A stretch of DNA of 64,000 nucleotides from Clytia hemisphaerica (taxonomy: Eukaryota > Cnidaria > Hydrozoa > Leptothecata > Clytiidae), in contig CACVBU010000855.1 of the NCBI GenBank assembly GCA_902728285.1, forward strand, positions 58,207 through 122,206, read 5' to 3'. The first letter of the stretch is position 1; every line of letters begins with the position of its first letter. Positions 12,560 through 52,100 of the stretch are shown one piece after another. The notes below the pieces were generated by a model. It searched no databases. It saw only the letters and a program-made list of their open reading frames with translations, and was not told the DNA's origin. Both the position numbers and the translations under genes were made by a program.

Positions 12560-12654
12560 ATCTGTCTGAGCTTTTTCTACCAAGATCATGTACTACAGAT
12601 TTTCCAGACCCGGATGACTTACTAAATTTTAAACTCACAATCCCACCAGATGAG
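12560..12654 (+). pseudogene. Orphan UBC12/UBE2F-like E2 exon (copy 2)
   Basis: Same sequence, acceptor and donor as the exon at 6236-6330, carried in the second tandem unit. The rest of the E2 enzyme, including the catalytic cysteine region, is again missing. Confidence 0.55.
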
Positions 12655-26300: not shown

Positions 26301-29300
26301 CAATCAATGATGAATTTCTTGCGTTATGCTTTCTGACTGATTTTTTTTCATTTTTCTCCTTGCATTGCTATCTAACTTTCATCATCAGGTAGGTCCATTC
26401 AGCATCTAGCTTGTTTTTTCATGATACAGGTTTACAATCAGGATCGGTGGTAGCTTTGTCAACTTCTGGTTACCTTGCCGACTCGTCTTATGGATGGCCT
26501 TCTTCCTTCTACTTATACGGTATGCTATATATACAGTGTGTTCCGAAAAAAGCAGACAAATTGTTATATAAATTATATAAATTATATCCAATGTATAGCA
26601 ATGTGCCCTCCCGGTTATTACCATAATGGCTTTATGGCAACTCCTGAACTTGGGCACAGGATGTACGGTTACACATTTTGTGGATTGCATTGTGGAGTCA
26701 CAAAAATAATATCTTCACAATGTGTTCCGAAAAAAGCAGACAAATTTTTATATAAAATAAAATCCTCATTATTTATGCCAAGTGTATTCAATGATCTGGG
26801 GTACATTTTTAACATTACTCGCGAGGGGAAAATATATCTTTAAAAGTATATGGTCTGCTCCCACAAATAGTTGGCAATCTGTACATTTAGTTAAAAATTG
26901 CGCTTGTGAGGGAGTACATTCAACTCTCTCTCTAATTCGACTCGAACGCTATCTTCCTCTTCCATGAAGATTTAATTGAAAATATTTCAAGATGTATTCT
27001 ATAGTTTTTCTACATTTACATTTATCAGTAGTTTTATTCTCAACTTCAGTTGAGCTACAATCTGACAATGTCTGTGTGTCTGTCTGTGTGTCTGTCTGTC
27101 TGTCACAAAAACTTTAGGGCAGCCTGGAGACTTCAAAAATGCTTGGATTTGGCTGAAATTTGGCACACTTGTTCCTTGGGTGAATATCTAGGGGTATTTT
27201 TTTCATTTTTTGAAAATTTTAATTTTTGGGGCCTGGGGACGAGTTTTTCGCCAAAACGAGGCTAAAACTTTGGGGCAGCCTGGAAACTTCAAAAATTGTC
27301 GGATTTAGCTGAAATTTGGCACACTTGTTCCTTGGGTGAATATCTAAGGGTGTTTTTTTTATTTTTCAAAAATCTTGATTTTTTGGGCCTGGGGACGAGT
27401 TTTTCGCCAAAACGAGGCTAAAACTTTAGAGTAGAGCCTGCAGGCCTCAAAAATGGTTGGATTTGGCTGAAATTTGGCACACTTGTTCCTTGGGTGAATA
27501 TCTGGGGGTCTACAATTGGGCCTATGAATAATTTGAAGCCACTGAAGTTGAGCCCAGTGTGTTGCGCACGTTCGACTATATTCTTAATAATGTAGCTTAA
27601 GACATTCGACTCGAACGCTGTCTTCCTCTTCCACGGAAATTTAGTTGAAAATATTTCAAGATGTGATTTCAAAGTATCCAGTTAAATGAGAAAGTCAACA
27701 AAATTTCATTTATTCAGCCGAAGCTTTTCGGTATAACCATGCCATGATCAATGCTAGATCTCACAAAAAAAAACTCAAGATTTTTCTTTGATTTTTCTAC
27801 ATTTCATTATTAGGATTATCTGTCATCCTGTCAGTTTTATGGTTCATATTCATAATAATGTAGCTTATGACATTCGACTCGAACACTATTTTCCTCTTCA
27901 ATCGTGGAGATTTAGTTGAACCAAATATTTCAAGATTTATTCCTTACTTTGTCTACATTTCCATTCATAGGAGGTTTATCTTTCATTGTATCAGTTTTAT
28001 GGTTCATATTTGTTTACGATTCACCATCTCAGCATCCTTTCATATCAGATGAAGAAAAGACCTACATACAGAAACATGTGAAAAAGGTGTCGGAATCCAA
28101 TAAGGTAAACTTATTGTCCCGTGGGGGTGGGGGCACTAGGGTTATGTGCCGCCCGACTTTCGATCATTGGGCTAACCTGGACTAAAAAGGAGAAAAAAAA
28201 GCAAAATTTTGTGAATTTTACAATTTTACGACCCTTATTGGGACAAATTTGACCAAATTTCGATCTTTCCAGGGGTAAAAAGTTGAAATTTTCTATTTCT
28301 CCGACCCTTAGCGGGACTTTGGAAATCCAAAAAAGATACCCTTAAGGGCGGCACATACCGTACCCTCCATTTGCCGAAGTACCCCTCCCCCCCGGCTTAT
28401 TGTTTATCTGACCTTTTTTCTTGAAAGTGAGGGCCGAAATGCTTTTTCTATTTCTATTTTGGTTGAATTGTAAGAGGCTCTGATACCCATTTTCTCAACT
28501 ATAGACGCTTTCAATAAGTGCCCCGTCAGCACCTTGGACTGACTACCCAATTCCCCTCACATGGCATGAGGGCTTGATTTATCTACCTATAAAATATCTT
28601 GATTGCAGGGGTCTTATTTAGGCCCAGTGAACGGTGAATTTCTCCGGTCCAAGATACGAAAAAATTTACAAGTCGCCGGTCGAAATGTTCGGTTCGCCGC
28701 CTCAAGTACGTATTCACGCTAATCAATACACTGTGCTTGCTAAGAATTCGCCGGCATAGAATCTAGAATTCGCCGAAGCTAATTTTTCATTCGCCAGCGC
28801 CTAACTGCCTACCAAAAACAAAGAAAAACCCTTGAGTACAGCTTTTTCTCTGTGACAATTTTTTGATGACGTTGATATTAGTTCAGAGTACGTATGAACA
28901 GATCTACGGGGAATCTTTCAGACTGTTAAATAAAAAAAAATTATTCCAAGAAACATGTGATTTTACACGCTTTTTTATAAGAACCGTTATATTTTGACTC
29001 GGGCTAGGCTGTTCTTAATTTTTTGCAATTTTCAGGCTTAAATGCTCTTACGATGTTATACGCTTTGTTCCTTTGTATTTTCTAAGTAATTTTAAGCAAT
29101 TTCTGAAATCTGAGGCTGAGGATCGTTCTTAATTATACTTTTGGCCAATTTTCAGCCATATGCTCTTTAAAAAATCGTGTATTTTAAAAAACATAAAGAG
29201 TATATGATATGGTGAAGCTTCAACTTCGTCGTTATTATGGTAAACTCTCGCTCATTCGAACTTATATTGTTTGAATCTTTCTATATTCCCAGCCCCCGTC

Positions 29301-32300
29301 AAGGAGAAACCGTCTTGATATACTTTCGATAATTCGGATCTCTCTGTAATTCGAACGAATAAGATAGCCGGTTCGAGAGTCAAATGTACTATCTCAGTAG
29401 TTTCAGTAGTGCAGCCAAGAGGGGTGCAAAAATTGTGAATAGATAATTACAGTGTCATGAAAATCTGCTCTCCTACACAAATTTTTCGCCCCTCCTGTCA
29501 ACTATTTTCATTTCTCAGAATGTGAGAATTCCATGGCGTTCTATGCTGACATCCATGCCAGTTTGGGCAATCATTGTTGGATGTTTTAGTGATTCTTGGG
29601 TGTTCACAATGGCTCTTGGGCTACCTACATATTTTGAACAAGTCTTGGATTTTAAGATTGAGAATGTGAGTATTCTGTTAATAAATTTTTGTTTTTACAT
29701 TAAGTGTTCCCGTTTCATAATCAAGACACATATTTCATAGCAGGGTAGTGTCTGCCTATTCTTATATTATGTTCATATAAACAAAAAATGTTTTCTTGCT
29801 CCACATCCTTGTTTAATCAATCAAATTAATTTAATTCCGAATGGCTCATAAATCTAAATTTGGCGGGATAAAATTTTGGCGAATTTGGCGAATTTTTGAG
29901 GCTATTCGCCAAATTCGCCAAAATTTCTTCCCGCCAAAATTGCTTCTCTTAAGGTAGTCTCATTATTTCCTTTTTAAGGATGGTCTCCTGTCGGCTTTAC
30001 CGTATCTTGGCTCATGTGTCGTCTACTTGGGTATCGGATTTATATCGGATTACATAAGAAAACATCATCTGTCAACGACTTATACTAGAAAACTCATCGC
30101 CTGCTTTGGTAAGCTATTTTTTTCTATTTTTCCATAGAAGAATCAGTTATTCTACAACCTTCCATGAGATTCTAATTTTTTGACCGATATCGATCGAAAT
30201 TTGCAATTTGGTTAAAAATTAAAAAAATGCGACCGTAGTGCAGTGGTAGAGCATCTGGCCACGGTGTGCAAGGTCATGGGCTCAATCCTCGGCCGGTTCA
30301 TACCAAAGACTTCCTATTTAATACAAAAAATGGTGGTACTAAGAAATATATATGTGTTGTGGGTTTTTGTCTTTATTGTTTCCATTTTGAGTAGTTGAAG
30401 GTTTTATACTTCTAGACTATATATATATATCTTTATAGAAAGATTCGAATAAACGAGAGTCTACTGTATCATTCAGTGGTCTTATTTAGACCCGGCGAAT
30501 AGCAAATTTTGCCGGTCAAAGGGACGAAAAAGATAACTATTCGGCTCACCGCCTCAAGTACATATTCACGCTAATCCATACACTTGGCTTGCTAAGATTT
30601 CGCCGGCCTAAAATCTGCAAAATGCCGGAATTAATTTTTCATTCACCAGCCTACCAAAAAAAACACTAAAACCTCTGATCGTTATTCTTGTTTTTAGTGT
30701 ACTTTCCAACAGCGGCATGTCTGATAGCTGTCAATTACACTGGATGCGATAATACATCTCTTTCCGTGGCTCTAATGGTCATGTCGTTGTGCTTTCTAGC
30801 GCTCAATCAAGGTGAACTGTTTCATGATTTACATTTTCATTGTCTTGATCTATGGAAAGTGAGCTTTTCCAGAAATTGTCCGTACCCCCTGTTGAGGATG
30901 CATTTTGTCCTGCACCCCCTGGATATTCTCTCTCTCTCTCTTAAATCGACTCCAGTCATGTCTTATGATGATGAAAAACACTCATAAAGGCCGGTCTCCA
31001 CATGAGCGAAACCTTTTGAAGTTTTTGTAAGCTCATTGGTCGGTTGAAAAATGAAGCAATTCCATTGGTCGAAATTGACGTAACGGATGAAAAAAGTAGA
31101 ACTTCCTTTAACTTTTTTTTGTTCGCGTGAAACTTTTTTATGACGTAATCTTTTCTTCAGGCAAAAAAGGTTGTGCGAAAGTGGAGACCGGCCTTAAGAG
31201 CTCATAAAAAGTTTACACGAGGACTCGTTAAAGCAGCCTAACGACCAAATGTTGGGATATTTCAAGGTCAAGGAATTATTATTTTTTTCATTTTTAGGGG
31301 CAGTCACCGTGAACCAAATGGATATCTCACCAAGGTTAACACATTCACGTACCTTTCTTAGAAGACAGTGTTTTTTGTTTGAATGATATTACTTACTAGA
31401 TTAAGTTTGGTCTAATATTGACATCCCTCATCTAATTTCAACATCCTTCATTAGAGATACCAATAAAGGGAAGGTCGGAATCGCTGATTGAAACTATATT
31501 TCTTTACTAAAAGGTCAGCTAGGAAAAATCGATTGTCTATCATTGATTCTGACCTTCCATTTATTCCTATCTCTAAAGAGGGGTGTTGGAATTAGATGAG
31601 CGATGTCGACATTTGACCAACTTAGGTTAGTTGAAATTTAAAAGAATTCGAAACTTTGCTTCTTACTTGAGATTACAGGGTGATGGCCTGTAGAAAAAAA
31701 TAGAAGGGTTTTATGACTAAGTATGCTCTAAATAATGTGGAAGCCGTTTATTTTTTGGTTTTAGAGAGTAAAGACAAACGTTTTAGTTAAATTAATTCAA
31801 TGATTTTTCAGTCAAAATGCACTTTTGAAAACGTCCAAAACGATAAAAATTATATTTCCCAACCCCTTTCCCTAATAATCTTCCATTATACTAACTAGGT
31901 ATTGCAGTATATTGGTCGGTATAACGAACACTTCGGCTTCATTAGCTGGCTGTCTTTCTCCATGGGTCATTGGCTATTTCACCAATGGTAATGTAAGTCT
32001 CTATATGGTATAATAACTTGGGGGAGGGGTTTCAAGGTGCTGGTATTCCGGTATTACAACTTGTTTCTATTCTAGTAAAGCGTGAGAAAATTACCGGTCG
32101 CTACGCCTTGACAGCCACTTAGGGTGCCACTTACGGCTTTTTGATGAACTGGATGGCGTTAATGTGATTCTGTGACTTCTTTTTCTTTGCCTGAGCACTA
32201 GATCTAGTCCCTTTTTGAAAAAAAACTATCACCAATTGATTAATTTCTCATATTTTGGAAGCCACTTTCTTTATCATTCATTTTTCAGCCCACACGAGAA

Positions 32301-32516
32301 CAGTATCGAAAAGTGTTTTTCTGTGCAGCGAGTGTGGCCACAGCTGGCGGTTTATTTTGTATCATTTTTATGAGTGGGAAAGTGCAACCATGGAATGATA
32401 TGAACGAAGAGAAAGAGGGTGAAAGTCCTTCTGGGAATACTGCTTGTGGAAAAAGTATCAATGTTTCCGATGAATGTGATGGTTATGACGAGACTGAACA
32501 TTTAGTTCGTTCTTAG
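20341..32516 (+). CDS. SLC17-like anion transporter (sialin/phosphate type), gene A
   Basis: Twelve coding exons: 20341-20541, 21000-21033, 21618-21817, 22323-22410, 26430-26519, 27971-28104, 29519-29665, 29979-30108, 30698-30811, 31298-31334, 31899-31992, 32289-32516. Total 1,497 bp, 498 aa; all junctions are GT-AG and in frame. Length and order fit SLC17 major facilitators (12 membrane spans), which move organic anions, often across lysosomal or vesicle membranes. Signatures: RMNLSVVLVAMVN in span 1, NWDQSQQGVILSSFFYGYILTQ before span 2, RYGGRK, RVLEG, IPWRSMLTS, PWVIGYFTN and a cytosolic acidic tail ending EHLVRS. A CTTCCAG acceptor at 20302 suggests a spliced 5' UTR. Odd points: GGW follows ILTQIF instead of the usual IPGG, and exon 4 (GGLFSALNQLVSQWVAQ) lacks the family's GEGVTFPAMH...WAPP residues, so transport activity may differ from gene B. 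Confidence 0.93.
20553..20648. repeat. AACGTT-rich palindromic element, copy 2
   Basis: Same inverted-repeat family as 97-194 (CTGGCACACAACGTTGTTTC and its reverse complement). It sits in intron 1 of gene A, about 12 bp after the exon 1 donor at 20542, so it is close enough to affect donor-site RNA folding. Confidence 0.8.
22041..22288. repeat. TTTTGGCGA/TCGCCAAAA hairpin element
   Basis: TACCTTCAGGAAACTTTTTCTGGCGA at the left is matched by TCGCCAAAAGTTCCCTTAAAG at the right, with many GGCGAA and CGCCAAA words between. Relatives in introns lie at 29855-29955 and 43490-43598. Confidence 0.55.
23135..23952. repeat. Dispersed TGTCCCGTACGCGACA near-palindromes
   Basis: Within intron 4 of gene A, variants of TTTGTCCCGTACGCGACA occur at about 23138, 23329, 23527, 23677 (reverse orientation), 23711 and 23939. 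The core CGTACG is itself palindromic. They are spaced irregularly and embedded in otherwise unremarkable AT-rich DNA. A direct repeat (GCCTTTTGGAACAATTTCAT...) follows at 24111-24208. I cannot assign them to a known element. Confidence 0.5.
24309..24541. mobile_element. TCCACTTTCGCGCG MITE
   Basis: Ends TGTCCACTTTCGTGCGAAGC and CTTCGCGCGAAAGTGGACA are inverted repeats, with the family's internal AAAAGATTACGTCAT, CCAATGG and CTTCATTTTTCAA blocks. Directly followed by a TTCGAA-type fragment interrupted by another MITE. Confidence 0.7.
24553..24700. mobile_element. ATTCATGATATTCATGACGTAATG MITE, copy 1
   Basis: ATTCATGATATTCATGACGT and its reverse complement bound the element. The interior has CAGTAGTGGCAAA/TTTGCTACTACTG as a second pair of arms. 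It is nested in a TTCGAAT-type repeat. Second copy at 33277-33404. Confidence 0.7.
24791..26398. mobile_element. GGACCTACC element with (GTTC)n tract, copy 1
   Basis: Left end TTTTTGGACCTACC...GGAGGTCCTATAAATTAACC, then a (GTTC)n microsatellite (24832-24866), then repeated ~150-300 bp modules rich in TGCCGGAAATATGCCGG and AAACATTATTAATAGCAATG. The right end is AGGTAGGTCC, the inverse of the left. No transposase is seen. It lies in intron 4 of gene A, ending about 31 bp before exon 5. Relatives: 47448-48087 (left end lost), 61699-62810, 63492 to window end. Confidence 0.7.
27062..27505. repeat. (TGTC)n tract plus ~155-bp tandem repeats
   Basis: A TGTGTGTCTGTCTG tract is followed by three successive copies of a ~155-bp unit beginning near AAAACTTTAGGGCAGCCTGG and containing GAAATTTGGCACACTTGTTC and GGGGACGAGTTTTTCGCC. 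Lies in intron 5 of gene A. The SSR-plus-module layout resembles the GGACCTACC family but the sequence differs. Confidence 0.65.
27814..27857 (+). pseudogene. Truncated duplicate of gene A exon 6
   Basis: After a TTATTAG acceptor, the text GGATTATCTGTC...GTCAGTTTTATGGTTCATAT repeats the start of exon 6 (27971 onward) and then breaks off. Pieces of the surrounding intron (CGACTCGAACGCT...CTTCCTCTTCC) are repeated at 26938, 27608 and 27875, so exon 6 and its upstream intron were partly duplicated. Confidence 0.65.
28118..28395. mobile_element. G-run hAT-like MITE in gene A intron 6
   Basis: CCCGTGGGGGTGGGGG at the left and CCCCTCCCCCCCGG at the right, flanked by the 8-bp direct repeat CTTATTGT (28110-28117 and 28396-28403). 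Inserted 13 bp past the exon 6 boundary. The interior has GGGACTTT/GACCCTTA words of the family. Confidence 0.75.
29855..29955. repeat. TTTTGGCGAA hairpin in gene A intron 7
   Basis: GGCGGGATAAAATTTTGGCGAATTTGGCGAA pairs with the reverse complement TTCGCCAAATTCGCC...CCCGCC. It ends about 24 bp before exon 8. Same family as 22041-22288 and 43490-43598. Confidence 0.55.
30227..30370 (+). mobile_element. tRNA-derived SINE (head and short body)
   Basis: GCGACCGTAGTGCAGTGGTAGAGCA contains an A-box-like TAGTGCAGTGG, and GGGCTCAATCC about 35 bp later is a B-box-like word, the split RNA polymerase III promoter of tRNA-derived SINEs. The cloverleaf stems do not close, so it is not a tRNA gene. The body continues with an A-rich stretch and fades near 30370. 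Located in intron 8 of gene A. Confidence 0.65.
30987..31197. mobile_element. GGCCGGTCTCCAC MITE in gene A intron 9
   Basis: AAGGCCGGTCTCCACATGAGCG on the left is the inverse of CGAAAGTGGAGACCGGCCTT on the right. Internal ATTGGTCGGTTGAAAAATGA and GACGTAATCTTTTCTTC blocks match other copies. Confidence 0.75.
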
Positions 32517-34125: not shown

Positions 34126-37100
34126 ATGACATCATGTTACGTACCACGCAGATATATTATGATCCTGTTTTCACATTTTGGTTTCTTTATTGTGTACGCG
34201 CTACGGGTGAATCTTAGTGTTGTTCTAGTGGCAATGGTGAACTCGACGTATGCTAATGTGGATAACAGTGATCCTGAATGCAGATCAACAGATACAAATG
34301 TAACAGCGGCAGAATATGTAAGTAATGAGATTCGCAAACCTAAGGGAACTAAAAGCTAGTCTCCACTAGCGCGCGCTGCAATCGCACATTTTTGGCTTCA
34401 ATCCTTTTTGCTTGGAAAAAAGATTACGTGATAAAGTTGTAGCGTGCCCTCAAAAAAAAAGTTGAACACATTTCAACTTTTTCCAACCGTTATGTCAGGT
34501 CGCGCCAATGGAGTTGCTTCATTTTTCAACCGACCAATAGCGTGGTAGCTTTGCTCGAAAAAGTGCGATCGCAGCATGCGCAAGTGAAGACCGGCCTTAA
34601 TTTTGGCTAGCACTAAATCCTATAATATTCTAAATCTGGCGAGGCAGTAATCTTTGAATTTTTCGAACACTGATCTTGGGAGGCCAAATTAGTTATGTTT
34701 TTTTAACAAGCATCCGGGTAAAATTGCCCAAATGTTGTATTAAAGCTTTGGAATTATGTTTAATCTATTTTTACTTATAATCTTACAGAATGGAGGAGAG
34801 TTCAATTGGAATCAAAACCAGCAAGGTAGTTTAGATTTCCTTATTTATTTATTTATTTATTTTTTACTTTAACCCTATTCGGCCTAGGAGGCTGTTTTTG
34901 TTCGGAGGTCAAATTATCGGTAATAGCTCCTGAAATAGTAGAGCTTTTGCCATGAAATTTTCTGTAAAATCCTAACTTTTATTCAGCTTCAAAATAAAAA
35001 AAAATTTGACAGCTAAAAATTTTCACACTCTGAGCATAATGACCTTTCTGACAGTAAGATGTCACAAAAACTGACACTTTTCCAATACAATATTATTTAT
35101 GTCAAATATATCGTTTAAACCGTAATTTATTGAATTTTATTAGAATACAATAGCTTTTTAAAAGAACAAAGGAAATTTTCGGTTTTCACTCATTTTGGAC
35201 ATGATGAGTGACGTCATCAAAAAAAATTTTTGTCAAAAGTTACCTTATGTGACAAGGATCTTTAATCCAAAAAGACCCCCTAGATCAAAAGTTAAGGGGT
35301 GGTACACGAAAAGCCCCCCCCCCCCTAGTTCTGAACCGCCCTAAAAGCCTAGGTTAAATAGGGTTAAAGGTTTTATTTTTACATAAGTGTTCCCGCTTCA
35401 TATCAGACACATATTTCATATCAGGACAGTGTCTGTCTATTGTCATATTATGCTGATATAAGCAAAAAATGTTTTTCTTTTCCTCTTTCTGACCAATCTT
35501 GCTCCACATCCGTGTCTATTCAATAAGAAAGAAAAAGGTTGGAATTAAAATTGATGAGTAAGCAAACGTACTCTTATTTAAGAATAAAACCTTTAAGTCA
35601 ACCGAAACGCTCCTGGAAAGACCTGTCAACCACGAGATTTTTCGCAAGTTTTCCTAAAGCTACCTGTCTACTTTAGGAGCTCGGTATTCATAGGAATGGG
35701 TCACTCTCAGATCACTGAGATTTACATAAACCCCCGGGGGCACTGACCTTGACGGCCGACGGGGACGTGTCGCCGGAGTTTGAAAATTGGGACCCTGCCA
35801 GAAAGAAAAATCTAAATTTTTTTTATCTTCGCCATGAAAAGTGACAAAAATCACTGAAGAATGACTGAAAGTAGACGAAAAATTGAAAACTTTTCTAATT
35901 TTCCACCCTGAAAATTGTCTAATATAACCAGAAGTTTGATATTAATTTTTAACATTACAATGCCTTCTTTGCAGGTACTACTTTCAAAAAAATTCCGATC
36001 AAAGATGTCGGATATATCTTACTCCAGGTTTCATAAGGTCATTGGTGACCATCCATATTTCTGCCGTGATCTGACAAAAGGAAGTAACTGCATTTTTCTT
36101 ATTTTGAGATAATTGCATAAACGAGTTGACCTTATTCAAGATTAATGGTATCGTTTTAAGATCAAAACTTTTGCTGATTGTGAAAGACCAAACCCTAGAA
36201 TAGTATAATATTTAAAATGAAGGAGTTAAAAGGAGATTAACATCTTGATTTTGGAAAAATCTACACAAGTTTTACTCTACTCAAGCCCTTTCAAGCTAAA
36301 AATTTTAAAGTTACTACCTTTTGTCAGAAAATGAAATGAAACTTTAGTCCAGAAAAAATGATAAAAAGAAGTCTTTTACTGGAAATGAACTACTGGAAAA
36401 TACAAGCTGGACCCTTAGGAGTTGATTTTTGCAAAAATATAAATTTAAAAAAATTGATGGTTACTTCCTTTTGTTAGATCACGGCAGATTTGTCCTGGAT
36501 AACCCGTTTCAATAATTTTCGGTTTCAGGGATAATTCTGAGTAGCTTCTTCTATGGATACCTATTAACACAAGTACCAGGTGGTTGGTTATCAATGAAAT
36601 TTGGTGGAAAGATTGTTCTTGGTTTAGGTGTTCTTGGCACATGCGTATTAACCATTCTAACACCTCTGGCAGCCCGCACAAGTATCTATTGGTTAATTGT
36701 GGTTCGAGTATTAGAAGGTTTTGGAGAGGTTAGTATCATTTTAAGTTGTTGTCTGAAATGTTCTGAAAACAAGTGCTTAGAAATGTTTCGACATGAAAAT
36801 CTTTAAGAATCACGAGGGTTCATAACTGGTTTTTGGAATCATTGAGCCTCAAAAGAATATTATATTATAGAGGTTAATCTAAGGTCGCGAATAAACCATC
36901 CCATATAATAACCCCACCCTGATTATCAAATTTTCGAAAACCAATTATAGTGCTCTGAATTATCTTTTCAACGATAATATACAATATGTTTGAATTGAAA
37001 AATTTGTGCGCACTTAAAAGGAATGGACTTGAGACTGGTCTTTGTGAAACGAGTTTACCAATGTTTAGACAAAAAAATCTCCGTATTATTGGCCCAGCGC

Positions 37101-40100
37101 TCAGCGCAATGGGCCTTTAAAACACAACTGGTCGAAAAAAATTGACTTTGTTGGGGTCTATGCGCGCAATTATCAATCGATGACTCCAGGCTGAGATCGA
37201 ACTACCTGACTTTCTATTGTGCGCATGCGTAAGAAAAAACCACATATAATTAATACCTCCAACTTATATGGTCAAATCTTTCTTTCTTAATTATTGGAAA
37301 AAAGTAATTAAATCTTTATTGCTCACCCGACTCGAGTCTACACATTGAAACAAATTCGCTCCTGTTGTATGGCGATTCTGCAGCGGAAAAATATGCTGAC
37401 AGTGCCAACACTTCTGGGCCTTTACGCCGCTTAGGCTTTCTTGTTAAGTATTAGAAAACACGATAAGAGAGTTAGATCCAATCAGTTCTAGTTTAATTTT
37501 TTTTGATTAAAATATTTTATCTTAATTATTTTCTTCCCGATGTTTCTGTTTCGAATTGTGACTTGCCTCGTGAATTGTTTCTATTGCAGGGTGTGGCAAC
37601 GGGCTGTTCCGTTTAATACCCATACAGGGGGGGAGGTGGACGAACCTTTCCAAGCCAAATAAATTCTGGAATGGAAAAATGGCAAGATTTAAAAACCATG
37701 GGAAAAGGGCCTTTACCCTTTTTAAAGTGTAAAGTGAGGGTGAACGAACTAAGATATTTCTATCACCCCTTGGAAATGTCAGAATAACTTTTAACCCCAC
37801 AGGCAATTCAAATGAGGTCCCTGGAAATTTCAAAAGCTTTTTCCAAACCCTTGGAAAATAAACAAGCATTTCTTTTCACAAGAGGAAACAAACTTTAGAC
37901 CCTTTAGATATTGGAAATATTCCTCATAAAATGGAATGGCGTAATCCCACCCCATATATTTTAATCGCACTATAAACCAATCAATTTCGAGTAAATTTTC
38001 CTCGACTGATGGTCATTAATTTTTTTTAAGCAAATCCAATTTTCGGGTCAGACCCAGGGTTGTGTTGCCTGTACCAGACGACCGTTTTTTTCCTCGACAC
38101 CGCTACGTCTGTAACTTTTTACAATTTACGAGACCAGTAAAAAATCGGATAATTTGAGTCCTCGAGCCTTAGCAAACTAGTTGCCTATAAAAAGATGGTG
38201 TATTTTTATCATTATAGGGTGTGACATTCCCAGCTATGCATTCCTTGTTAGCACAGTGGGCTCCTCCTGAAGAAATCTCTCGAATGGCTGTCATCGCATA
38301 CTCAGGTAAAAGCTAAAAAGCTTGTGAATCTTATTAAGCCACTGAAAAGGAAGTTTTTATCTTATTTTATCTAATATATTTGCAGTAATGTGGAAGTCTT
38401 GAGAGACAAAAATAATGTTTACTGTGGCGGCAAATTTGTACTAGTAATCTCATGGTTATGAGGGAAATTCGGGATAAATTTCCCTAGGTCAATCTAGAAA
38501 TTTTTTGAAATTTCCGAGTGCAACAAGGGAAATATAAAACATTTCGAAATTTGACCGAGGGTAATTTATCCAGAATTTCACGAAAACAAGCATGGGATTC
38601 CTGGTTAATCTCATGGTTTGGATTGAAATTCTAACAATTCTGAGACGTCAATTTAACACTGGAAATTAATCTGCAACTTTAAAAAGAGGTCTCAAAAAAG
38701 TTATAGAAACGCGAATCGAGTTTGACTTGGATAGTATTCCATTTACCTAAGCCTTCGAAGTTAGTAAGAAATTCGAAAAAGGTGATGAATTTCCAAACGA
38801 TGGAAATTTCACTTTTGCGGGAAATTTCAAAATTTCGGAGGGAAATTACAAAAGCTAGGAGGGAAAGTTCGCGGGAAATTACAAATTAACGTAAGCAAAA
38901 GCATCAATCGAATTCCAATCAACCATGAGATTAGAATACAGTATCCATAACAAGTTTTGACCATATTACGTGCCAGTTGAAAGCAATAATCCCTCCTGTT
39001 CCCTACATCCATTTATAACCCCCCCCCTCGGTGGACCCGGAATCTGTGCATCCACGCAATTTCTTGAAATTCATACAGAGTTTGGGGATATCCGGAAATA
39101 TCGTCGAAAAAATTACCTGAATCGCGCATTCACGCAATGAACAAGTAAATTTTCATCCTCACCCCCATATTCTCAATCTACGCATGCCAAAATCTATTTA
39201 CGCTGGCCCCATCTATCAAGCTCCATTTAGTTATCTGTCCATAATTTTTCTGTACTTATATTTTCTTTTACAGGTATGCAAACGGGTACCATCGTATCTC
39301 TCCCTTTATCAGGTGTTTTAGCAGATTCTTCATTTCTTGGTGGATGGCCTTCAGCTTTCTACGTCCTTGGTAAGGGGTCAATAATTAAGCACAGATTGTG
39401 ATTTACTAATTTAAAAACTGGTGCTTTTTCCATGAAGAAAAGGATTTTTCTTTCCGTAAACAATTCGCCCACATTGTTGGAATGTTGAAAATCAAGGTGA
39501 CAATATATTGCGAACATCTTTTCAATATATTACCTGACAATATATTGTGTAGTGTATGCCCGGGAAGGTGCAAAAAGGGGTACGGGGATGTGCCGCTGGT
39601 CAGGGTACCTTTTCACCTCCGTGAGTCCCGAGTACTAGGGTCGCAAAAATACCAAAATAAAAAAAAACAGTCCTTCGTAGGTTACCTTATTTCTGCGAGG
39701 GTAGTGCACCCCCCCCCCGAGAGTGTATGTAGCCCTATCACCACATTAACTTAGCCCTTACAAGAAACCTTACAAGGATTCACAAGCACTGCATTCTAGC
39801 ATTCACTTAACCATGGATTCTCTTTCGATACCAATGTACTAGCGTAGACAAGAAGGATACAAAATTTGAGTAAGAGAGCAGATTTTTATTACACTATTAT
39901 TGTCTAATCACAATATGAAAAGATAATTACCATGTTAAAAAAATATGCTCTCCAACACAAGTTTTGCGCCCTCTTCTCTACGCTGCTTCATGAGAATAAA
40001 TTTCTCTTTATAGGTGCTGTTGGTTGTGTATGGTTTTTATTTTGGATGGTCTTTATTTACGATGGTCCTGAAAACCATCCCTCAATATCAAACGTCGAAC

Positions 40101-43100
40101 GATTGTACATCACTAAAAGTCATAATAACAGCTCCTCCGATACTAAGGTATTGGATTGATTATGTATTTCGAGACTAGACCTTGTTAACCTCAAACCTTG
40201 ATCATACCATGATTATGGGATTGAGAAATTAGAATTGAAGTGTCTCTGTGTAATGCTCAGAAACTTAAGAAGGGTCAAAAGTCATAATAACAGCTCCTCC
40301 GATACTAAGGTATTAGATTGATTATGTATTTCGAGACTAGACTTTGTTAACCTCAAACCTTGATCATACCATGGTTAGAGGATTGAGAAATTAGAATTGA
40401 CGTGTCTCTGTGTAATGCTCAGAAACTTAAAAAGGGTCAAAAGTCATAATAACAGCTCCTCCGATACAAAGGTATTGGATTGATTATGTATTTCGAGACT
40501 AGACTTTGTTAACCTCAAACCTTGATCATACCATGATTAGAGGATTGAGAAATTAGAATTGACCTGTGTCTCTGTATAATGCTCAGAAACTTAAGAAAGG
40601 GTCAAAAGTCATAATAACAGCTCCTCCGATACGAAGGTATTAGATTGATTATGTATTTCGAGACTAAACTTTGTTAACCTCAAACCTTGATCATACCATG
40701 ATTAGAGGATTGAGAAATTAGAATTGACCTGTGTCTCTGTATAATGCTCAGAAGCTTATGAAAGGGTCAAAAGTCACAATAACAGCTCCTCCGATACGAA
40801 GGTATTAGATTGATTATGTATTTCGAGACTAAACTTTGTTAACCTCAAACCTTGATCATACCATGATTAGAGGATTGAGAAATTAGAATTGACGTGTCTC
40901 TGTATAATGCTCAGAAACTTAAAAAAGGGTCAAAAGTCATAATAACAGCTCCTCCGATACGAAGGTATTAGATTGATTATGTATTTCGAGACTAGACTTT
41001 GTTAACCTCAAACCTTGATCATACCATGATTAGAGGATTGAGAAATTAGAATTGACCTGTGTCTCTGTATAATGCTCAGAAACTTAAGAAAGGGTCAAAA
41101 GTCATAATAACAGCTCCTCCGATACGAAGGTATTAGATTGATTATGTATTTCGAGACTAGACTTTGTTAACCTCAAACCTTGATCATACCATGATTAGAG
41201 GATTGAGAAATTAGAATTGACGTGTCTCTGTATAATGCCCAGAAACTTAAAAAAGGGTCAAAAGTCATAATAACAGCTCCTCCGATACGAAGGTATTAGA
41301 TTGATTATGTATTTCGAGACTAGACTTTGTTAACCTCAAACCTTGATCATACCATGATTAGAGGATTGAGAATTGACGTGTCTCTGTATAATGCTCAGAA
41401 ACTTAAAAAGTCATAATAATAGCTCCTCCGATACTAAGGTATTGGATTGATTATGTATTTCGAGACTAGACTTTGTTAACCTCAAACCTTGATCATACCA
41501 TGATTAGAGGATTGAGAATTGACGTGTCTCTGTATAATGCTCAGAAACTTAAAAAGTCATAATAATAGCTCCTCCGATACTAAGGTATTGGATTGATTAT
41601 GTATTTTGAGACTAGACTTTGTTAACCTCAAACCTTGATCATATCATGATTAGAGGATTGAGAAATTAGAATTGACGTGTCTCTGTGTAATGCTCAGAAA
41701 CTTAAAAAGGGTCAAAAGTCATAATAACAGCTCCTCCGATACTAAGGTATTGGATTGATTATGTATTTCGAGACTAGACTTTGTTAACCTCAAACCTTGA
41801 TCATATCATGATTAGAGGATTGAGAAATTAGAATTGACGTGTCTCTGTATAACATAATGCTCAGAAACTTAAAAAGGGTCAAAAGTCATAATAACAGCTC
41901 CTCCGATACCAAGGTATTGGGTTGATTATGTATTTCGAGACTAGACTTTGTTAACCTCAAACCTTGATCATACCATGATTAGAGGATTGAGAAATTAGAA
42001 TTGACGTGTCTCTGTGTAATGCTCAGAAACTTAAAAAGTCATAATAACAGGTCCTCCGATACTAAGGTATTGGATTGATTATGTATTTCGAGACTAGACT
42101 TTGTTAACCTCAAACCTTGATCATACCATGATTAGAGGATTGAGAAATTAGAATTGGCGTGTCTCTGTATAATGCTCAGAAACTTAAAAAGTCATAATAA
42201 CAGCTCCTCCGATACTAAGGTATTGGATTGATTATGTATTTCGAGATTAGACTTTGTTAACCTCAAACCTTGATCATACCATGATTGGAGGATTGAGAAA
42301 TTAGAATTGACGTGTCTCTGTGTAATGCTCAGAAACTTAAAAAGTCATAATAACAGGTCCTCCGATACTAAGGTATTGGATTGATTATGTATTTCGAGAC
42401 TAGACTTTGTTAACCTCAAACCTTGATCATACCATCATTAGAGAATTGAGAAATTAGAATTGGCGTGTCTCTGTGTAATGCTCAGAAACTTAAATAGGGT
42501 CAAAAGTCATAATAACAGCTCCTCCGATACCAAGGTATTGGATTGATTATGTATTTCGAGACTAGACTTTGTTAACCTCAAACCTTGATCATACCATGAT
42601 TAAAGGATTGAGAAATTAGAATTGACGTGTCTCTGTGTAATGCTCAGAAACTTAAAAAGTCATAATAACAGCTCCTCCGATACTAAGGTATTGGATTGAA
42701 TATTAGTAGACTTTATTAATTTGAGATATGAAGTTGATGCATCTCTGTACAATACTCAGCAAATAAAAAATAGTCATGTGTGTTTGGAGCATTCTCACGC
42801 TAACGAGTAGACAGCTATATGAGAAGGAAGCATTCGGCTCGCCATAGAATAAGACCATGTTCACACGTTACTGTTCCGTTTCGCTCCGGTATGATTTTCG
42901 TTACGGATCGAGTGTGTTTATATTGGTTTCGGAACGTTCCGGAGCAAGAAAACAGAGCAGTTCCGTAAGGACCGTAACGTCTGAACATGGTCTGAGGTCG
43001 CACAGAACCCTTTCTCCAATGACATATCTCATTCAGGTAAATCTCTATTTGTGTATCATCTCACTCTGTACCGTGCCTGAAAAAACGGATTATATGTCGT

Positions 43101-46100
43101 GTTTGGCCTTACTCATTGTTTAGAATTTCTTTGGGAATCAACTATCTATTTTATAAAATAAAGATGATAAAAGAATAATATTAAGGGTTTTATATTCGTA
43201 TGAATTCTGTTTTCTGAGCTCATTATACATTCATAGGCCATTTCTAGCAAAAACAACCAACAGTATAAATCTATAGATAGTTATCAGAGCACAGTGGTCC
43301 TGACTATCCCTTGATTCTTTTAGACCATAAAATGGCCTTTTCATGATATGCAACACTGTAATGTCTTCTGATATTACATCACGGATCAAATAGCTGATTG
43401 GTTGTAAGTGACGTAAAATCAGTCAATACGTCACTTGCGACCAATCAGCTTTTGTGTCCATGGAAGACATTGCAATGGTTACCTTAAGGGAAGAAATTTT
43501 TGCGAGAAGAAATATTCGCGGAAGAAATTTTCGCGGGATTTAATTTCGCGAATTGGGGCGTAATTTCTTCTCGCGAAAATTTCTTCCCTTTAAGGTATCA
43601 TAAATTTATTCATTTAGTCAACAAAGATACCGTGGTCACACATACTAACATCAAGGCCAGTATGGGCGATTATGATTGGCTTGTTTAGTCATTGTTGGGT
43701 GTGGTACATGTTGTTGACAGGACTACCATCATACTTCAGTGAAGTACTTGATTTCAAACTTAAAAATGTAAGTGACATTCTCAGCTAATACGGATTTTAC
43801 AATTCTATCCAAGTATAATCAACTATAGTCAAGTATAGTGTAACTTCTGTAATTCGAATATTTCGGTTTAAAACTTTTTGGTCCCCTCAACTTGATGACG
43901 GTATAAAATACTCACTTCTAATCTTTCTCTAATTCGAAGATATCCCTTGAACATCGAATTAGAGGGTGTCAGCTGTATTACCTACCAAACATCCTAATTA
44001 ACGAAAGCTACAGGATTCGTGCCGTCGTGGAGGGGGGAGTAAAGGCTGGTCTCCACTTGCGCGCGCTGCGATCGCACTTTTTGACTTCAATCCTTTTTGC
44101 TTGGAAAAAAGATTACGTCATGAAAATGTAGCGCGCGCTGGAAAAAAAAGTTGAACACATTTCAACTTTTTTCAACCGTTACGTCAGATCGGGCCAATGG
44201 AGTTGCTTCATTTTTCTTTTGACCAATAGCGTGGAAGCTCTGCTCGAAAAAGTGCGATCGAAGCGCGCGCAAGTGGAGACCGGCCTTAAAGCCATGGTTC
44301 CCTCACTTTTTTTTCAAATAAAAATTTAGTTTCAAAATATCTTCAATAACTTCATTTCTGAGCAAAGTCACTCTGAAATCAAAATCGAAATTTTCTCCCG
44401 TCGGGGCCCAAACCATGAATGTGCGTCTCCTTCGTCACTAGTTATGGGCGTTTTTAAGTACTAATAAATTTGCCTTTCCCTCCGCATTTCTTATTGTTCG
44501 AAGCTTTCAGGCCTAAAATGGTCTTAAAAAATATTATAACTCGAATTTTAGTTATTTTACTTAAAATTTCCTAAAAATGGCTTGAAATCCAAATTTATTT
44601 TCTTTGTTGATTTTTAAATCCAAGTCCCTATTATCGTTTTTATTTTTCTAGGCTCATGATGTTATAAATATTGTCCTTAGGCGAAAATAAAAGAATGTAG
44701 TGTTTTCAGAATGCGAGTGAATGAAAAAAGCTCTCATGCCGACGGCCGGAAAAAATTTTTTTTTGCTGCTATTTTTGATAACTTAAGATCATTGAAATAG
44801 AACTTTAAAGGTGACTTTTACATACAAACAGTGTGAAGTAAGCCCCGAATACTTATGTATCAACTACTAACGAAGTCTGCGGCCGGGTCAGAAATTTTTT
44901 TTTCACCCGGCCGGCTTCCGGAAACATTACATTTTTTTATTTTCGCCTAAAAATAATTTTTCATGTCTTTACCTTCCTCATAGAATGGGTTTCTCTCAGC
45001 ATTACCATACCTTTCATCGTTCGTGGTACAACAAATAGGTGGCTGGTTCGCAGACTACCTACGGAAAAATTGGATATCAACAACTGCTGCACGCAGACTA
45101 GCTGGTATTTTAGGTAGGATGTGGAGCAAAGTATCAAGCATGGCTCATTTCCAGAATTTTCTTTGCTGAATATGGTTTTCGTGCTGTTTTTTAACTGACA
45201 CACAACGTTGTTTCAACGTTTATCTAACGTTGTATAGACGTTGTGAACGTTCGATGAACAACGAAAGAACGTTGTGTGCCAGCTGGGTTTCAAAATTTCG
45301 GTATTTCAAATTATTATTTTCGAGCTTGATTGCTACTTTACCGCTAATCATGTATAAAATCCCATCCGAGAGTTACCCCGTATTTTCTTGAAAAGGCTTA
45401 GAAATTCAATGATTGTTTTAACTTCTAGCCATTTAGATTTTTAATTTGAATTTAATGTCATTTAAAGATCTATCATTTACTTATCGACCTAATCAAGCAT
45501 TTAAAATCTCTCGAACGGGAATTTATTACACGATAAGCATTCCCTCTATCGAAACCTATCAGCAGGGATGTGCGCAGCCTTGTTCACCGCGGACATTTCA
45601 CATTTTAGCCCCCACTCAATCTCACTGAATACTAATCGTTTCTTGTGGGGGTTGCACTCGATCTGAAAGTGACTGTGTGTGTGCATGCTCCGTTCAGCTC
45701 ATTAATTATATGACTAATTACATTTAGCTTAGAAATATAAGGGAGAAGTGGGGTATCTGTAATAGCCCTGCTGTAATCACCCCGCGAAATAAGAGAAAAA
45801 GAAAATCTTCAAAGAAAAGCCTACAACTTTTTTCAAAAACTAATTGATTTCATAGTTGTACAATTCGAATATTTTGATTGGTTAGTTGTCATTCGAACTT
45901 CTGTTAAGTGACAAAAATAAAAAGGAAGATTGACCCTCGAAAAACCATGTTATTACTAGTACATATCATAGAGCCTGGTTCGCTCTTATATATTACAATA
46001 GTCCACAATTTACTAGTCTCGATTTCCAGACCACTATTCTTTTAACACAAAACGTAGGAGCAATCCTGCTTCAAAGTCAAAAAGAAGAGAAAAAGCCGTA

Positions 46101-49100
46101 CGGAAAGTTGGAATAGTGAATTAATTAAACTAATTCAAAAACACGAAAAGTAAGCAAACTTCTAGGTAGGTTTTTTCTACTACTTTGAAAGAAGCTTTTG
46201 AGTAAAACTGATGTTAATTAGTAATCTAGCTCTAGACTAACAATTTACTTTCTCTTTACAGCATTTTATCCGTCCGCTGGCTTTCTATTGCTGGTCAGTT
46301 ATGCAGGCTGCGATCAAATCGCTTTATCAGTAGGCTACCTGGTTTTAGCAGTGACTTTCATTACACTTAATCAAATTGGCTTGATTTGTAGTCAGGTAAG
46401 TTTTTCTTCATTAAATAGACTTTTATCGGAAAAAAATACCGAAATTGTTTGAGTAGTTCCTTCTCCCATGGATTTTTCATAGTTACCCCTTTGATTTTTG
46501 CCCAAGTCTTAAAGATTCTTTCCTTGGATTTTGGCCAAGAGACCCACATGGTAGGTAAAAATGTTTTCTCGAATAGCCCAAACTCCCTAACACTTCTCTC
46601 ATAAAGCTGAAAAAAAGTCAATTTAAAAACAGGAAAGCAATTCATGATATGCACCACTGCAATGACTTCACAAAATCATGCAACTGTTCTGTTTTTATTC
46701 CAACCAATACGTCAATTTTTCTATTGTTCAAGTGAAGTATTGGGTGTAAAATTTTAAAAGTTCTTAGAAGACTCTCCAGTGGTGCATATCATGAATAAAG
46801 GTTATCGCACTCAATTTTTCGTAGGTCGACATTGCACCAAGATATGTGGGAATAATAATGGGACTTGCCAACTCAGCTGGTACAATCGCAGGATGTATCA
46901 CACCTTCAGTTACTGGCTATTTTACCAACGAACATGTAAGTTTTCTTTTTAAAACCTCTTAAACTTATAAAGACCATTTCATTTATTACACACCCTTACA
47001 ATGTATCCAGCTAAAAGAAGACCCTTTTAGTGCACTCTATCAAAAGTACACCATTACAGTGTATTTCAAGGGTCTTGAAAAACCTACCCCTAAGGGCGGC
47101 ATGTGCGTAGGTCGGACCATGAGTGCCCTCTCCGGGTGAGTGGATTGAGAGAAGGGAGCAAAAGGGATATTTCCACAATATTGTCCTGGAGCTAAAATTC
47201 GAGGATAGTCTTGGCTTCAGGGAAATGTTTCAAATGGATTTTAGGGATTTCGAGTTTGTATTATAAATGAAGTATCCCATTCTCAATTTCGAACATTTTT
47301 AAAACATTCCATTGTCAAATTCAAACGTTTCATTGTTCGAAATTTGCAACTCTTTGACATGTTGGAAGAAAAGCACCACCAAACTAATCCAACACGAAAA
47401 ATTACACAATTCAATGAGAGAGCTTCTTTGATCACGCCGAAAAAGTTGGACCGTCCGTCCGTCCGTCCGTTCGTCTGTCACCAGCTTTTCTCGAGATTGG
47501 CTCGTTAGTTTTTTCTGGGTTTTCATTGGACTTTTTCCATATAATTGGTTGTTTTTTTTTTCATTCAAAAACATTATTAATAGCAATGCCCACCATCAAG
47601 CATGTTTCAATTTTCAATAAAATTGATTTTTGAAGCCGGAACTATTTAAAAATCGCCGGAACAACCTATTTTCGCCGGAAAGACAGTATTTCTTGAATTT
47701 CTCGAGCTGTACTTTATATTTTTTATGAAATTTTGCACACTGATGCAAAATGACAATACCTAAAATGTGACGGAGCCCGATTTTCAAAAAAACATTGGCC
47801 GAAAATGCCGGAAATATGCCGGAAAAACCGGTTTTTTGACATTTTTTCGAATTTTCATCATTAGTTTTTCCTGATTCTTTGCAGTAAGATGCGTATTCGC
47901 AATGCTCAAAACATGACCGAGTTCGATTTTTTTTTTTTTTCCGGTCGAAAATGCCGGAAATATGCCATGATTATGCCTTATATAAAATGTTCACCTCTGT
48001 TCTATCTTTTCAAGCTCTTCATTGCATTTTCTTACCCTTTGGCAATTCTTCTATTTTTATCTTATTATCATTGTTAGGTAGGTCCATTTAGCATGTGGTT
48101 TGTTTTCTTCTTTTTTTGAATTTTCATTTTTTTCCAAAAATTTGAATTGATACAAACCGGTCCAACATTTCATCCAACATCAGAAAAAAGGCATGTTGGA
48201 TGAAATGTAGGATTGGTTTACCCTGGCCTTTATTCTGCAAAAACACTCCACAGCTCCATTAAAACGCAGACAACTCATTCCAATTCTTATTCGACATTTT
48301 GAAGTCAAAACATTGTAAATTCTCTAGTCATCAAAATGTTTTATTAAATTTTTTTTTTTTAACGTGATTTTTAATACAATATTTCAAATAATATTCAATA
48401 ACTCTGGAGGCTTTCCCGGCATGCAATAAAACAAATCTAAATTATTAAAATTATTATTAAAAGTGAAGACATTGCAGTGTTTAACCGAACAATTAAGTTA
48501 CGTCACGCGCTATCTTTTGGTTCAATAGCGAGTTTATAGCGAGATTATGTATCTGGAATTCTCTAATGCTACGGCTAAAGCAGCGAGGGAAATGGCGAGT
48601 AAGGCAAGTAATGGCGGGTGAAAGCAAGTTCGATATTTGACGTACGGCATTATGTCGACTTTGCTTATACAGAGTTTTGGTGTTTTTCCCGTACAGAGCA
48701 AAGTAGATAACGACATGTCGCCTTTGGTGACGACCCGCATGGGCAGCCCCGCAACCGTAGCCGTAGAATATCTCCGATACATAATCTCGCTTATGTATTT
48801 TGGGACGGTAAAGTGACTGAAGCGACTTGAAATGACCCGCAGTTCTGACCCCTAAATCAATGACGGTAAAAGTGCTGATTTACCGTCGTCCTCAGTTGGT
48901 CATGATCTAGTCAAATTAGAACCTTACCGTCTCCGTCGCTGAAAAACACACATGCATAAACTCGGTAATGATTGGTTGAGTAACTGCAATCTTTATGCAA
49001 GCTCTGCGTTTTTGAAGCAGCAATTCAGACCTCGAAAAACATAATGTCAATTTGGCTTTAAGAACAGCCGAGTATCAATAAAAATTTACTGTCTATTATT

Positions 49101-52100
49101 GAAAGAAATGTACGCAAATGTTCCTGAAATGACATTTAAATAGAAGAGATGAATATGTTTTTATAGGTTTTTTCGCAATATATAATTTAAAAGTTTCTAT
49201 TTTTTATCAAAAGAAATGTACGCAAATGTCATTCCTGGTATGACATTTAAATAGAGAGATGAATATGTTTTTTATAGGTTTTTTCGCAATATATAATTTA
49301 AAAATTACTATTTTTTATCAAAAGAAATGTACGCAAATGTCATTCCTGGTATGACATTTAAGGTATGTGTACACCTTTTTTCCGATTTTTTGTCAAAGTT
49401 TTTTTTTAGTCAAAGTGGAAGAAAAGTTACTGGATTTCATTTTGGTAAAATCGCGATCTTAAAATCTCTTTTTGATCCAGAGTTATAACCATTTAAATTT
49501 CAAAACAAAGTTCGTCTTATGATGGATTATTTACTCAAATAATTGTCTCTTTCGGAAACAACAAAGACAAAAGAGAGAATTCAGCTGATGTTTATTCTCA
49601 CCTCTATTGAATAGTAATATTTTTCACACCTTTCACTGATTACTCAAATAAACAGCAATCATCTCGTTAAAAATTTCAAATTGATGTAGAAAAAAACGAA
49701 ATTTTACCACACCATACTACTTTTAGCGAAGTTAAAGTCACCCATAGCATTTAGATATCGACTTCATTCTTTTTTTATGAGATTCCCAAAAGATCAAACT
49801 TAAAAAGTGTCTTAGGATTTTATTTCTAACCGAGTTGTTTTTCCTCAATTAACAGATAACTGAAAAAATCACATTTAAATTTACTTTTTTATCGATATTT
49901 TTACAGAATTTAGGATTTAAAGAGTTAAAGTCAATCCCAAAAAAAATCCCAAGATATTTTTTTAGTTCAATCTATTGGGAACATAGTAACGAAATTATCT
50001 TTTCAAAATTCAAAAGCTATGGGTGACTTTAACTTCCTTGAAGTAGGTAAGGTTAAAATTCTTAAGATTTTAATTATATCCTGCCCAGTTTTTTAAGTTC
50101 AGCTGAAACTTTTACCATTAGAAAGAGAATATTATTGGCTTTCAGAAAATATATACTTTTGATATATAAAAATTTGTTGTTCTAAAGATATGATCAATTA
50201 AAGAGAATGTGTCAAGAAAGGTGAACACATATGTTTTTTATGGGTTTTTCGCAATATATAATTTAGAAATACATATGACAACTTCACCTTGCAAAGCTAA
50301 GATAATTGAATAGAATTTTGACAGCGTTGACTTACATATGAACCATTTTCGATTGACTAGTTCTAAAAATATACACTGTCAAACCGAAAAATATTAACGA
50401 ATTGAATTTTAAAAACAAATCAGATTTTTGCAAGTTTTGTTAAGAGCAGAACCTTCTTGATTTATTAAATCGTTTTCAACGCTAAAGATTTTTGCTCTAA
50501 GAGAAAACTTTATACACTAACAGTACAAGTATTGGAGGAAAAAGAATTTCACATAACCTTTAAAGATCTTCAAGCCCGCTGTGACAAAAGTACAAAAACT
50601 GAGAATTATGATTTTCAAACTAGCATCATGCGTACTGTTGACTATCTTTGTCACAGCTCAAGCGCAAAAGCAGTCTACGGCTATGTACAGGGTGATTGAG
50701 AACAAAACAGCAGTCAGTGACGACCATAACCCGTTCTTAAATGAGACTGTACATAGCACCATGCAATGTTTCATGAAGAGAATCGATCATCCTCATTTTG
50801 TTGAAGTCAAAACCGACGGAAAGATGCACCAATGTCGTTTCTATGAAGCAATTAAACCTAGCTCCATTCGAAGGAGTCCTGAAGCGGGAATTGTTTTGTA
50901 TCAATACCTAGGTGTAACAGCCAGTCTCTGTCAGGATCTTGACAGTGAGGTGAACGGTGTCTTCCAACTAACTCTTGGTAGCGAAGAAGGTAGCCTGACC
51001 AAGGTGTACTGTGATCAGACCGAGAACGGAGGTGGCTGGACAACATTCCAAAGACGCATAGATGGGTCTGTTGATTTCATCAGAAACTGGGAAGACTATA
51101 AGAATGGTTTTGGTGAGGCTGATGGGAATTATTGGCTTGGTTTGGAGAAGTTACATCAAATCACACATCGATATGAAACAGTGTTGATCAGAGTTGAAGC
51201 GACCACGAATGATGGATCTCATACTTTTGTTATTCATGAAGGATTCAAAGTTAGCCCTGAATCAGACTTTTATAGATTGACAGCAGGCATTTTGACGGAA
51301 GGTGACTATTCATATGGGAGAGGCTGGAACGTTGTGAATAATTATCGTTTTACGACCTATGATAAAGATAACGATAACTATCTGGGTGGTAACTGTGCTA
51401 TTTTAGCTAAAGGTGGAGGCTGGTTTAAGAGTTGTGCCTGGATAGATTTTAATAGTCCTTATTCTCAAATACGTTGGTTCCATTTTTCGAATGATATCAA
51501 ATCCATTAGTTTGGCGGTCAAAGTGAAAAACTGACCTTGTAAAAGACATTATTTTGTGTATTTCCTAACCATTTGCTAACACAGCATTTTTAAAGAAAAG
51601 GAAGAACAGTTTTTTCTCCTTTCGGCGCTGTGCAAGCAAAATTTTAATTGTATTTAAATTATTTAAGCATTGTTAATTTAAGGCTTTCTTTTTTGGACGG
51701 GTATTTATAACACCATTTATTCAACCAGTATTTATTTCCGAATTTTATATAAATTATTTAAGTATTGTTAATTTAAGGCTTTCTTTTTTGGACGGGTATT
51801 TATAACACCATTTATTCAACCAGTATTCATTTCCGAATTGTATTTGAATTATTTAAGTGTTAATTTAAGGCTTTCTTTTTTGGACGGGTATGTATTACAC
51901 CATTTATTCAACTAGTATTTATTTCCAAATTGTATTTACATTATTTAAGTGTTAATTTATTAATTTATTTTATTTATTAATTGTTAATTTAAGATTGATT
52001 CGTTGAATTGTTAAAAAAAATTTGTAATGGTAGAAGCAATCTAACGTCATTTTACTTCAAAAGTGCCCTGCGTTTCTCATATTGTACTTGCTAATGTCCG

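What the first reader, a model, noticed from the sequence alone, without database searches (positions are those of the whole stretch)
40115..42780. Minisatellite made of a 5' splice site: 17 tandem exon/intron junctions
Each ~160-bp unit repeats the last 33 bp of exon 6, the donor and the start of intron 6. All copies keep AAG|GTATT, so the transcript offers up to 17 competing donors, with weak AATGCTCAG acceptors just upstream of each exon-like block. Use of inner donors would add exon-like pieces, most not multiples of three, giving frameshifts, or would act as a length-variable splicing regulator. Exon-boundary satellites of this kind are rarely described.
Basis: partly seen in the sequence, partly recalled or inferred. 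Interest (0 to 1): 0.85.

Follow-up and report, generated by a model that had tools for sequence, protein, structure and literature searches.

The report
Tandemly repeated splice donor in transporter gene
In an animal sialin-like transporter gene, the end of one exon and the start of the next intron are copied 17 times head to tail, so the gene shows 17 near-identical splice donors; most uses of the extra ones would spoil the message, and a human gene is known to carry a repeat of the same general kind.

Summary
The array is real: 17 copies of AAG|GTATT from 40145 to 42692, in units of 146-167 bp. It begins inside coding exon 40014-40147 of an SLC17/sialin-like gene. A tandem paralog in the window has an intron at the same place with no TRF array in it, so the array is probably derived. 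Extending the exon to any of donors 2-17 meets one shared in-frame stop (16 of 16). Any single pseudo-exon gives a premature stop (16 of 16). However, 45 of 120 pairs of pseudo-exons stay open and in frame. The unchanged AAG|GTATT is no proof of selection (33 of 118 eight-column windows are equally invariant). An array spanning some junction is not improbable here (P about 0.35). Neighbouring copies are most alike, as local duplication predicts. Best reading: a locally grown minisatellite, removed as intron from donor 1, with some unproductive splicing. The human ABCA7 repeat, whose first two bases are an exon's donor GT, is a close precedent. Suggestive but weak: variation in the exon-like blocks lies only at third codon positions (4 of 4 columns). 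RNA use and copy-number polymorphism could not be tested.

The parts
40014..40147 (+). coding exon (fifth detected) of the sialin-like gene; its last 30-33 bp are the first exon-like block; donor 1 AAG|GTATTG follows
   Evidence: frame, GT-AG borders and alignment to sialin 8dwi
40115..42703 (+). tandem array, 17 donors, unit 146-167 bp
   Evidence: TRF and direct search
40261..42687 (+). 16 acceptor-plus-donor pseudo-exons: 5 of 49 nt, 5 of 50 nt, 6 of 40 nt, the first 40261-40309 and the last 42648-42687
   Evidence: splice use not shown
42700..42780 (+). diverged tail of the last unit; 42721-42776 is 74% identical (42 of 57) to the unit, possibly close to the pre-duplication intron
   Evidence: blastn against the window with the array masked, E 0.002; alignment
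43475..43601 (.). long inverted repeat (39-nt arms, 85% complementary) ending 16 nt before the exon at 43618; predicted RNA hairpin -65.3 kcal/mol, z -8.67
43618..43767 (+). next coding exon (STKIPWSHIL...), acceptor ATTTAG|TCA
34126..52981 (+). sialin-like gene carrying the array; ten coding exons detected, last one 52853-52981; join between the first two unresolved
20356..32429 (+). tandem SLC17 paralog; homologous intron 28105-29518 (AAG|GTAAAC ... TCTCAG|AAT) with no TRF array

Best explanation
A segment of about 160 bp covering the last 30-33 bp of a coding exon, its weak donor and the start of the intron was duplicated, perhaps across the short match AGTCAT present in the exon and again at the end of the array, and then grew to 17 copies by local unequal exchange or slippage (inferred from sequence). 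In the RNA, donor 1 is most likely the main one used, because it ends an exon of normal size (134 nt) and gives the sialin-like protein; the rest of the array is removed as intron. Occasional use of inner donors or of acceptor-donor pseudo-exons would give messages with premature stops that are probably destroyed. The array is thus mostly a tolerated by-product that may lower productive splicing as copies are added. Shown: the array, the junction, the stops. Inferred: the origin, the choice of donor 1, the cost.
For: Array and units. Adjacent copies are more alike than chance: mean difference 5.27 against 7.02 at lag 1 (0 of 5000 shuffles as low), 5.57 at lag 2 (P 0.0024), no signal from lag 3 on. 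The unit has no other copy in the window apart from its own diverged tail (best other hit E 0.34). The paralog intron at the same site has no TRF array. The junction fits sialin. Donor 2-17 extensions carry a stop in 16 of 16 and acceptor-to-any-later-donor exons in 136 of 136. Substitution density in the exon-like block (4 of 30 columns) is like that in the intron part (21 of 123; Fisher P 0.79). Ten arrays with units of 24 bp or more lie in the window; one spanning a junction by chance has P about 0.35, and a given 162-bp unit 0.07.
Against: Donor 1 scores lowest of 15 inferred donors of the two genes (0.21, next 2.0), and the true acceptor lowest of 14 (0.16), so dominance of the normal junction is not guaranteed by site strength. 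All four variable columns of the exon-like block are third codon positions, which plain neutral drift of inner copies does not predict. Pairs of pseudo-exons can be in frame (45 of 120). No RNA was examined.
Confidence: 0.68

Rival explanations
1. Length-variable splicing regulator: the inner donors and acceptors act as decoys and poison exons, so copy number sets how much productive transporter message is made.
For: Weak donor and weak true acceptor; strong hairpin ending 16 nt before the true acceptor; 15 of 17 array acceptors score above the true one; published intron repeats whose length alters splicing, TERT (PMC3948165, passages) and ABCA7.
Against: No RNA, no population data; no sign of selection on the donor core; unit RNA shows no unusual folding (z 0.16, one unit folded). 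In ABCA7 retention of one unit did not change with repeat length; exon 19 skipping did.
Confidence: 0.17
2. Recursive splicing: each AAG|GTATT is an AG|GT ratchet point, so the intron is removed in steps that leave no trace in the message.
For: AG and GT are joined in 17 of 17 copies; a CTCCTCC stretch lies upstream.
Against: As acceptors these sites score -2.7 (13), -2.16 (2) and -4.07 (2), all below each of 14 inferred acceptors (0.16 or more) and near the 53rd-68th percentile of AGs in the window. The intron is only 3470 nt; the ratchet points described in Drosophila lie in long introns (PMC8605326, passages).
Confidence: 0.03
3. Coding use of inner blocks: a 50-nt pseudo-exon from the 5' cluster together with a 40- or 49-nt one from the 3' cluster adds 30 or 33 residues in frame in the loop between the sixth and seventh membrane helices.
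For: 45 of 120 pairs are open and in frame, namely each of pseudo-exons 3-7 with each of 8-16; the second block is then read in its native frame, SHNNSSSDTK. Block variation is at third positions only.
Against: 0 of 16 single, 0 of 560 triple and 0 of 1820 quadruple inclusions are open. Inclusion of exactly two very short exons, one per cluster, would need control for which nothing is seen. Site-level excess of synonymous changes is weak (P 0.058).
Confidence: 0.03
4. Assembly artefact: the copy number, or the array, is not as in the genome.
For: Not testable; a 6.3-kb tandem duplication at 99.84% identity in the same window shows that near-identical tandem copies occur in this assembly, whether true or false.
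Against: The copies differ from each other by private and shared changes in an ordered way, which collapse or simple mis-joining would not create.
Confidence: 0.05

Closest known systems
Human ABCA7 intron 18 VNTR (PMC5954066, passages seen)
   Same: The repeat starts with the GT of the exon's donor, every 25-bp unit carries a donor, 12 to about 427 units, use of a further donor retains one unit and gives a premature stop.
   Different: Unit 25 bp and wholly intronic; here 146-167 bp with 30-33 bp of coding exon and an acceptor-like site, so pseudo-exons are possible. ABCA7 has RNA and population data; this locus has none here.
Internal tandem repeats at exon-intron boundaries in human segmental duplications (PMC2812944, passages and section 11 seen)
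   Same: Tandem repeats spanning exon-intron boundaries; 27 intron modifications reported.
   Different: There repeats make new introns in recent primate paralogs; here the intron is older than the array, since the paralog shares it.
Intron gain by tandem duplication of an AGGT segment (Rogers model; PMC4974935, passages seen)
   Same: Tandem copies of an AG|GT segment; multiple tandem copies in fission yeast genes are cited there.
   Different: Here the AG|GT is a standing exon-intron border and no new intron is shown.
TERT intron 6 38-bp VNTR (PMC3948165, passages seen)
   Same: An intronic minisatellite whose copy number controls splicing.
   Different: It lies more than 1 kb from exon borders and acts by RNA pairing; not a repeat of a splice site.
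Drosophila intronic ratchet points (PMC8605326, passages seen)
   Same: Joined acceptor and donor.
   Different: Those are in long introns with good acceptors; here the acceptor half is poor.

Membership tests
Donor-containing VNTR (ABCA7 type) | First unit supplies the exon's own donor | tested here: met
   Donor 1 at 40147 lies in unit 1; junction by frame and homology, not by RNA
Donor-containing VNTR (ABCA7 type) | Further units repeat the donor | tested here: met
   17 of 17 AAG|GTATT
Donor-containing VNTR (ABCA7 type) | Copy number varies among individuals | not testable with these tools
   one sequence only; no genome held
Donor-containing VNTR (ABCA7 type) | Inner donor used in RNA; length alters splicing | not testable with these tools
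   no RNA data
Recursive-splicing ratchet point | AG and GT joined | tested here: met
   17 of 17
Recursive-splicing ratchet point | Functional-looking acceptor half | tested here: not met
   -2.16 to -4.07, below each of 14 inferred acceptors, by a score built from recalled frequencies
Intron gain by tandem duplication | Intron new, absent from relatives | tested here: not met
   the paralog has an intron at the same position and phase
SLC17 (sialin-like) transporter gene | Sequence match along the protein | tested here: met
   MFS_1 3.2e-43; sialin 8dwi 2.8e-80 over query 8-299 of 301; two short pieces tested alone gave no Pfam hit
Dispersed satellite or transposon family | Unit found elsewhere | tested here: inconclusive
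   not elsewhere in the window; 0 exact matches of one 33-base pattern in viral contigs; own genome not held

The most novel reading that the evidence does not exclude
The array is a combinatorial coding device: a 5' cluster of 50-nt pseudo-exons (numbers 3-7) and a 3' cluster of 40- or 49-nt ones (8-16) are so arranged that one from each gives an in-frame insert of 30 or 33 residues between the sixth and seventh membrane helices, while any other tested number kills the message; third-position-only variation in the exon-like blocks would be the mark of that coding use.
Probability: 0.04. Interest if true: 0.8.

Novelty: new variant of a known kind. Interest (0 to 1): 0.38.

Why it matters
If inner donors are used, this is a natural test of how a spliceosome chooses among 17 near-identical donors at known distances, and of how a growing repeat at an exon border is tolerated. 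The array-free paralog next door is a ready comparison. If they are not used, it shows how strongly exon size and position protect the first donor.

Tried and rejected
Selection on the donor core: rejected as unproven; 33 of 118 ungapped eight-column windows among units 1-16 are invariant. RNA structure of the unit: nothing unusual in the one unit folded (z 0.16). Dispersed repeat: not in the rest of the window. Recursive splicing: acceptor halves poor. Intron gain: the intron is shared with the paralog.

Third-position signal: 4 of 4 variable columns are third positions (hypergeometric P 0.0077; 0.0075 by simulation); 5 of 6 distinct changes synonymous (P 0.0009-0.005 for three transition weights; 0.008 with the intron's own spectrum), but three of the six are at one column. 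Counted by column (3 of 4 synonymous) P is 0.058. The test was thought of after seeing the sequences. I treat it as unexplained and weak.

My first wording that only donor 1 can be productive was too strong; testing pairs showed 45 of 120 in frame. I lowered the best explanation from a planned 0.70 to 0.68 and made the pair reading the novel case.

Paper searches: no paper listed showed, in title or opening of abstract, a tandem array of exon end plus donor of this size; two searches returned none. This is an open-access library only and listings were read by title and abstract start. ABCA7 was recalled and then found. The species is unknown to me; an invertebrate is a guess.

Full report
Observation. 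TRF finds 40115-42703, period 162, 16.3 copies, 94% matches. There are 17 AAGGTATT in it and 2 elsewhere on the + strand. Units are 146-167 bp; length changes come from a 9-bp block before the exon-like part, a 7-bp deletion in units 8 and 9, and small insertions. The last unit diverges sharply after GGATTGA; its tail 42721-42776 is still 74% identical to the unit.

Host gene. Joined exon translations match Pfam MFS_1 (3.2e-43) and solved sialin (8dwi, 2.8e-80). The exon 40014-40147 joins 43618 in phase...SSSDTK|STKIPW.... Ten coding exons were detected, from 34126 to a C-terminal exon at 52853-52981 that is 60% identical to that of the paralog. The join between the first two exons was not resolved. 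A tandem paralog lies at 20356-32429. Its homologous border is AAG|GTAAAC at 28104 and TCTCAG|AAT at 29519, and TRF lists no array in that intron. The array therefore most likely arose in this copy after the paralogs split; loss in the other is possible.

Growth. Adjacent units are most alike (lag 1: 5.27 differences against 7.02, 0 of 5000 shuffles; lag 2: 5.57, P 0.0024; lag 3 and beyond no excess likeness). This fits local duplication of one or two units. The exon carries AAAAGTCAT and the sequence after the array carries AATAGTCAT, which may be the short match used in the first duplication, or a remnant of a further unit; I cannot tell which. Ten arrays with units of 24 bp or more lie in the window and only this one overlaps a detected coding exon; under random placement at least one spans one of 32 junctions with P 0.35. 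A junction-spanning array is thus notable but not improbable.

Splice sites. On a score from recalled human frequencies, donor 1 is the weakest of 15 inferred donors (0.21, next 2.0) although still among the best 310 of 3241 GTs of the + strand; the true acceptor 43618 is the weakest of 14 (0.16); the array acceptors score 1.83 in 15 of 17. Other AGs in the intron outside the array score higher still, such as 43324 (5.26), so the score alone does not predict use. A 39-nt inverted repeat (43475-43513 and 43563-43601, 85% complementary) ends 16 nt before the exon at 43618 and folds strongly (-65.3 kcal/mol, z -8.67; 0 of 200 shuffles). It may mask or bring near the branch site; both ends of this intron are thus unusual.

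Consequences. All 16 exon extensions hit the same stop; 6 of 16 are multiples of three, which does not help them. All 16 single pseudo-exons (5 of 49 nt, 5 of 50, 6 of 40) give a stop, inside them in 11 and downstream in 5. All 136 combinations of an array acceptor with any later donor give a stop. Of pairs, 45 of 120 are open and in frame: each of pseudo-exons 3-7 (50 nt) with each of 8-16 (40 or 49 nt), adding 30 or 33 residues, the second block being read in its native frame. Of triples 0 of 560 and of fours 0 of 1820 are. Array acceptors and the CTCAG type only were tested; other AGs were not.

Variation. In units 1-16 the exon-like block has 4 variable columns of 30 and the intron part 21 of 123 (Fisher P 0.79); pairwise difference is 0.042 and 0.034. 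So the block is not conserved above the intron part. Yet all 4 variable columns are third codon positions (P 0.0077) and 5 of 6 changes are synonymous (P 0.0009-0.008); by column the synonymous excess is weak (P 0.058). One column holds three of the changes. I have no good mechanism; outward copying from the coding first block is possible but sits badly with the four private intron changes of unit 1.

Comparison. ABCA7 in humans has a VNTR whose first two bases are the donor of exon 18; retention of one unit, by use of a donor in the repeat, occurs and gives a premature stop, and longer repeats go with more exon 19 skipping but not with more unit retention (PMC5954066, passages). This locus works, at most, like that, with a larger unit that also carries coding sequence and an acceptor. 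I call it a new variant of a known kind. Interest is moderate: a clear and unusual anatomy, an array-free paralog as a control, no RNA evidence.

Noticed in passing
3330-9650 and 9651-15973: Tandem duplication of about 6.3 kb, 99.84% identical (2 mismatches, 7 gap openings over 6326 aligned), each copy with a 292-residue stop-to-stop frame (8271-9146, 14595-15470) that looks to me like an F-box protein (recalled, not searched); could be recent or an assembly artefact.
   Followed up: partly
43475-43601: Long hairpin-forming inverted repeat, transposon-like, just before the true acceptor.
   Followed up: partly
29856-29941: Inverted repeat with 38-nt arms, 92% complementary, in the paralog, 37 nt before its exon at 29979.
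   Followed up: no
50557-51531: Frame of 325 residues on the + strand inside the last detected intron of the sialin-like gene, with a signal-peptide-like stretch by eye.
   Followed up: no
63676-64000: 24-bp pyrimidine-rich array running to the window end and open in all three + frames.
   Followed up: no
40120-42755, - strand: A frame of about 30 residues (SWYDQGLRLTKSSLEIHNQSNTLVSEELLL and variants) recurs on the opposite strand of the array; probably a by-product of the repeat.
   Followed up: no
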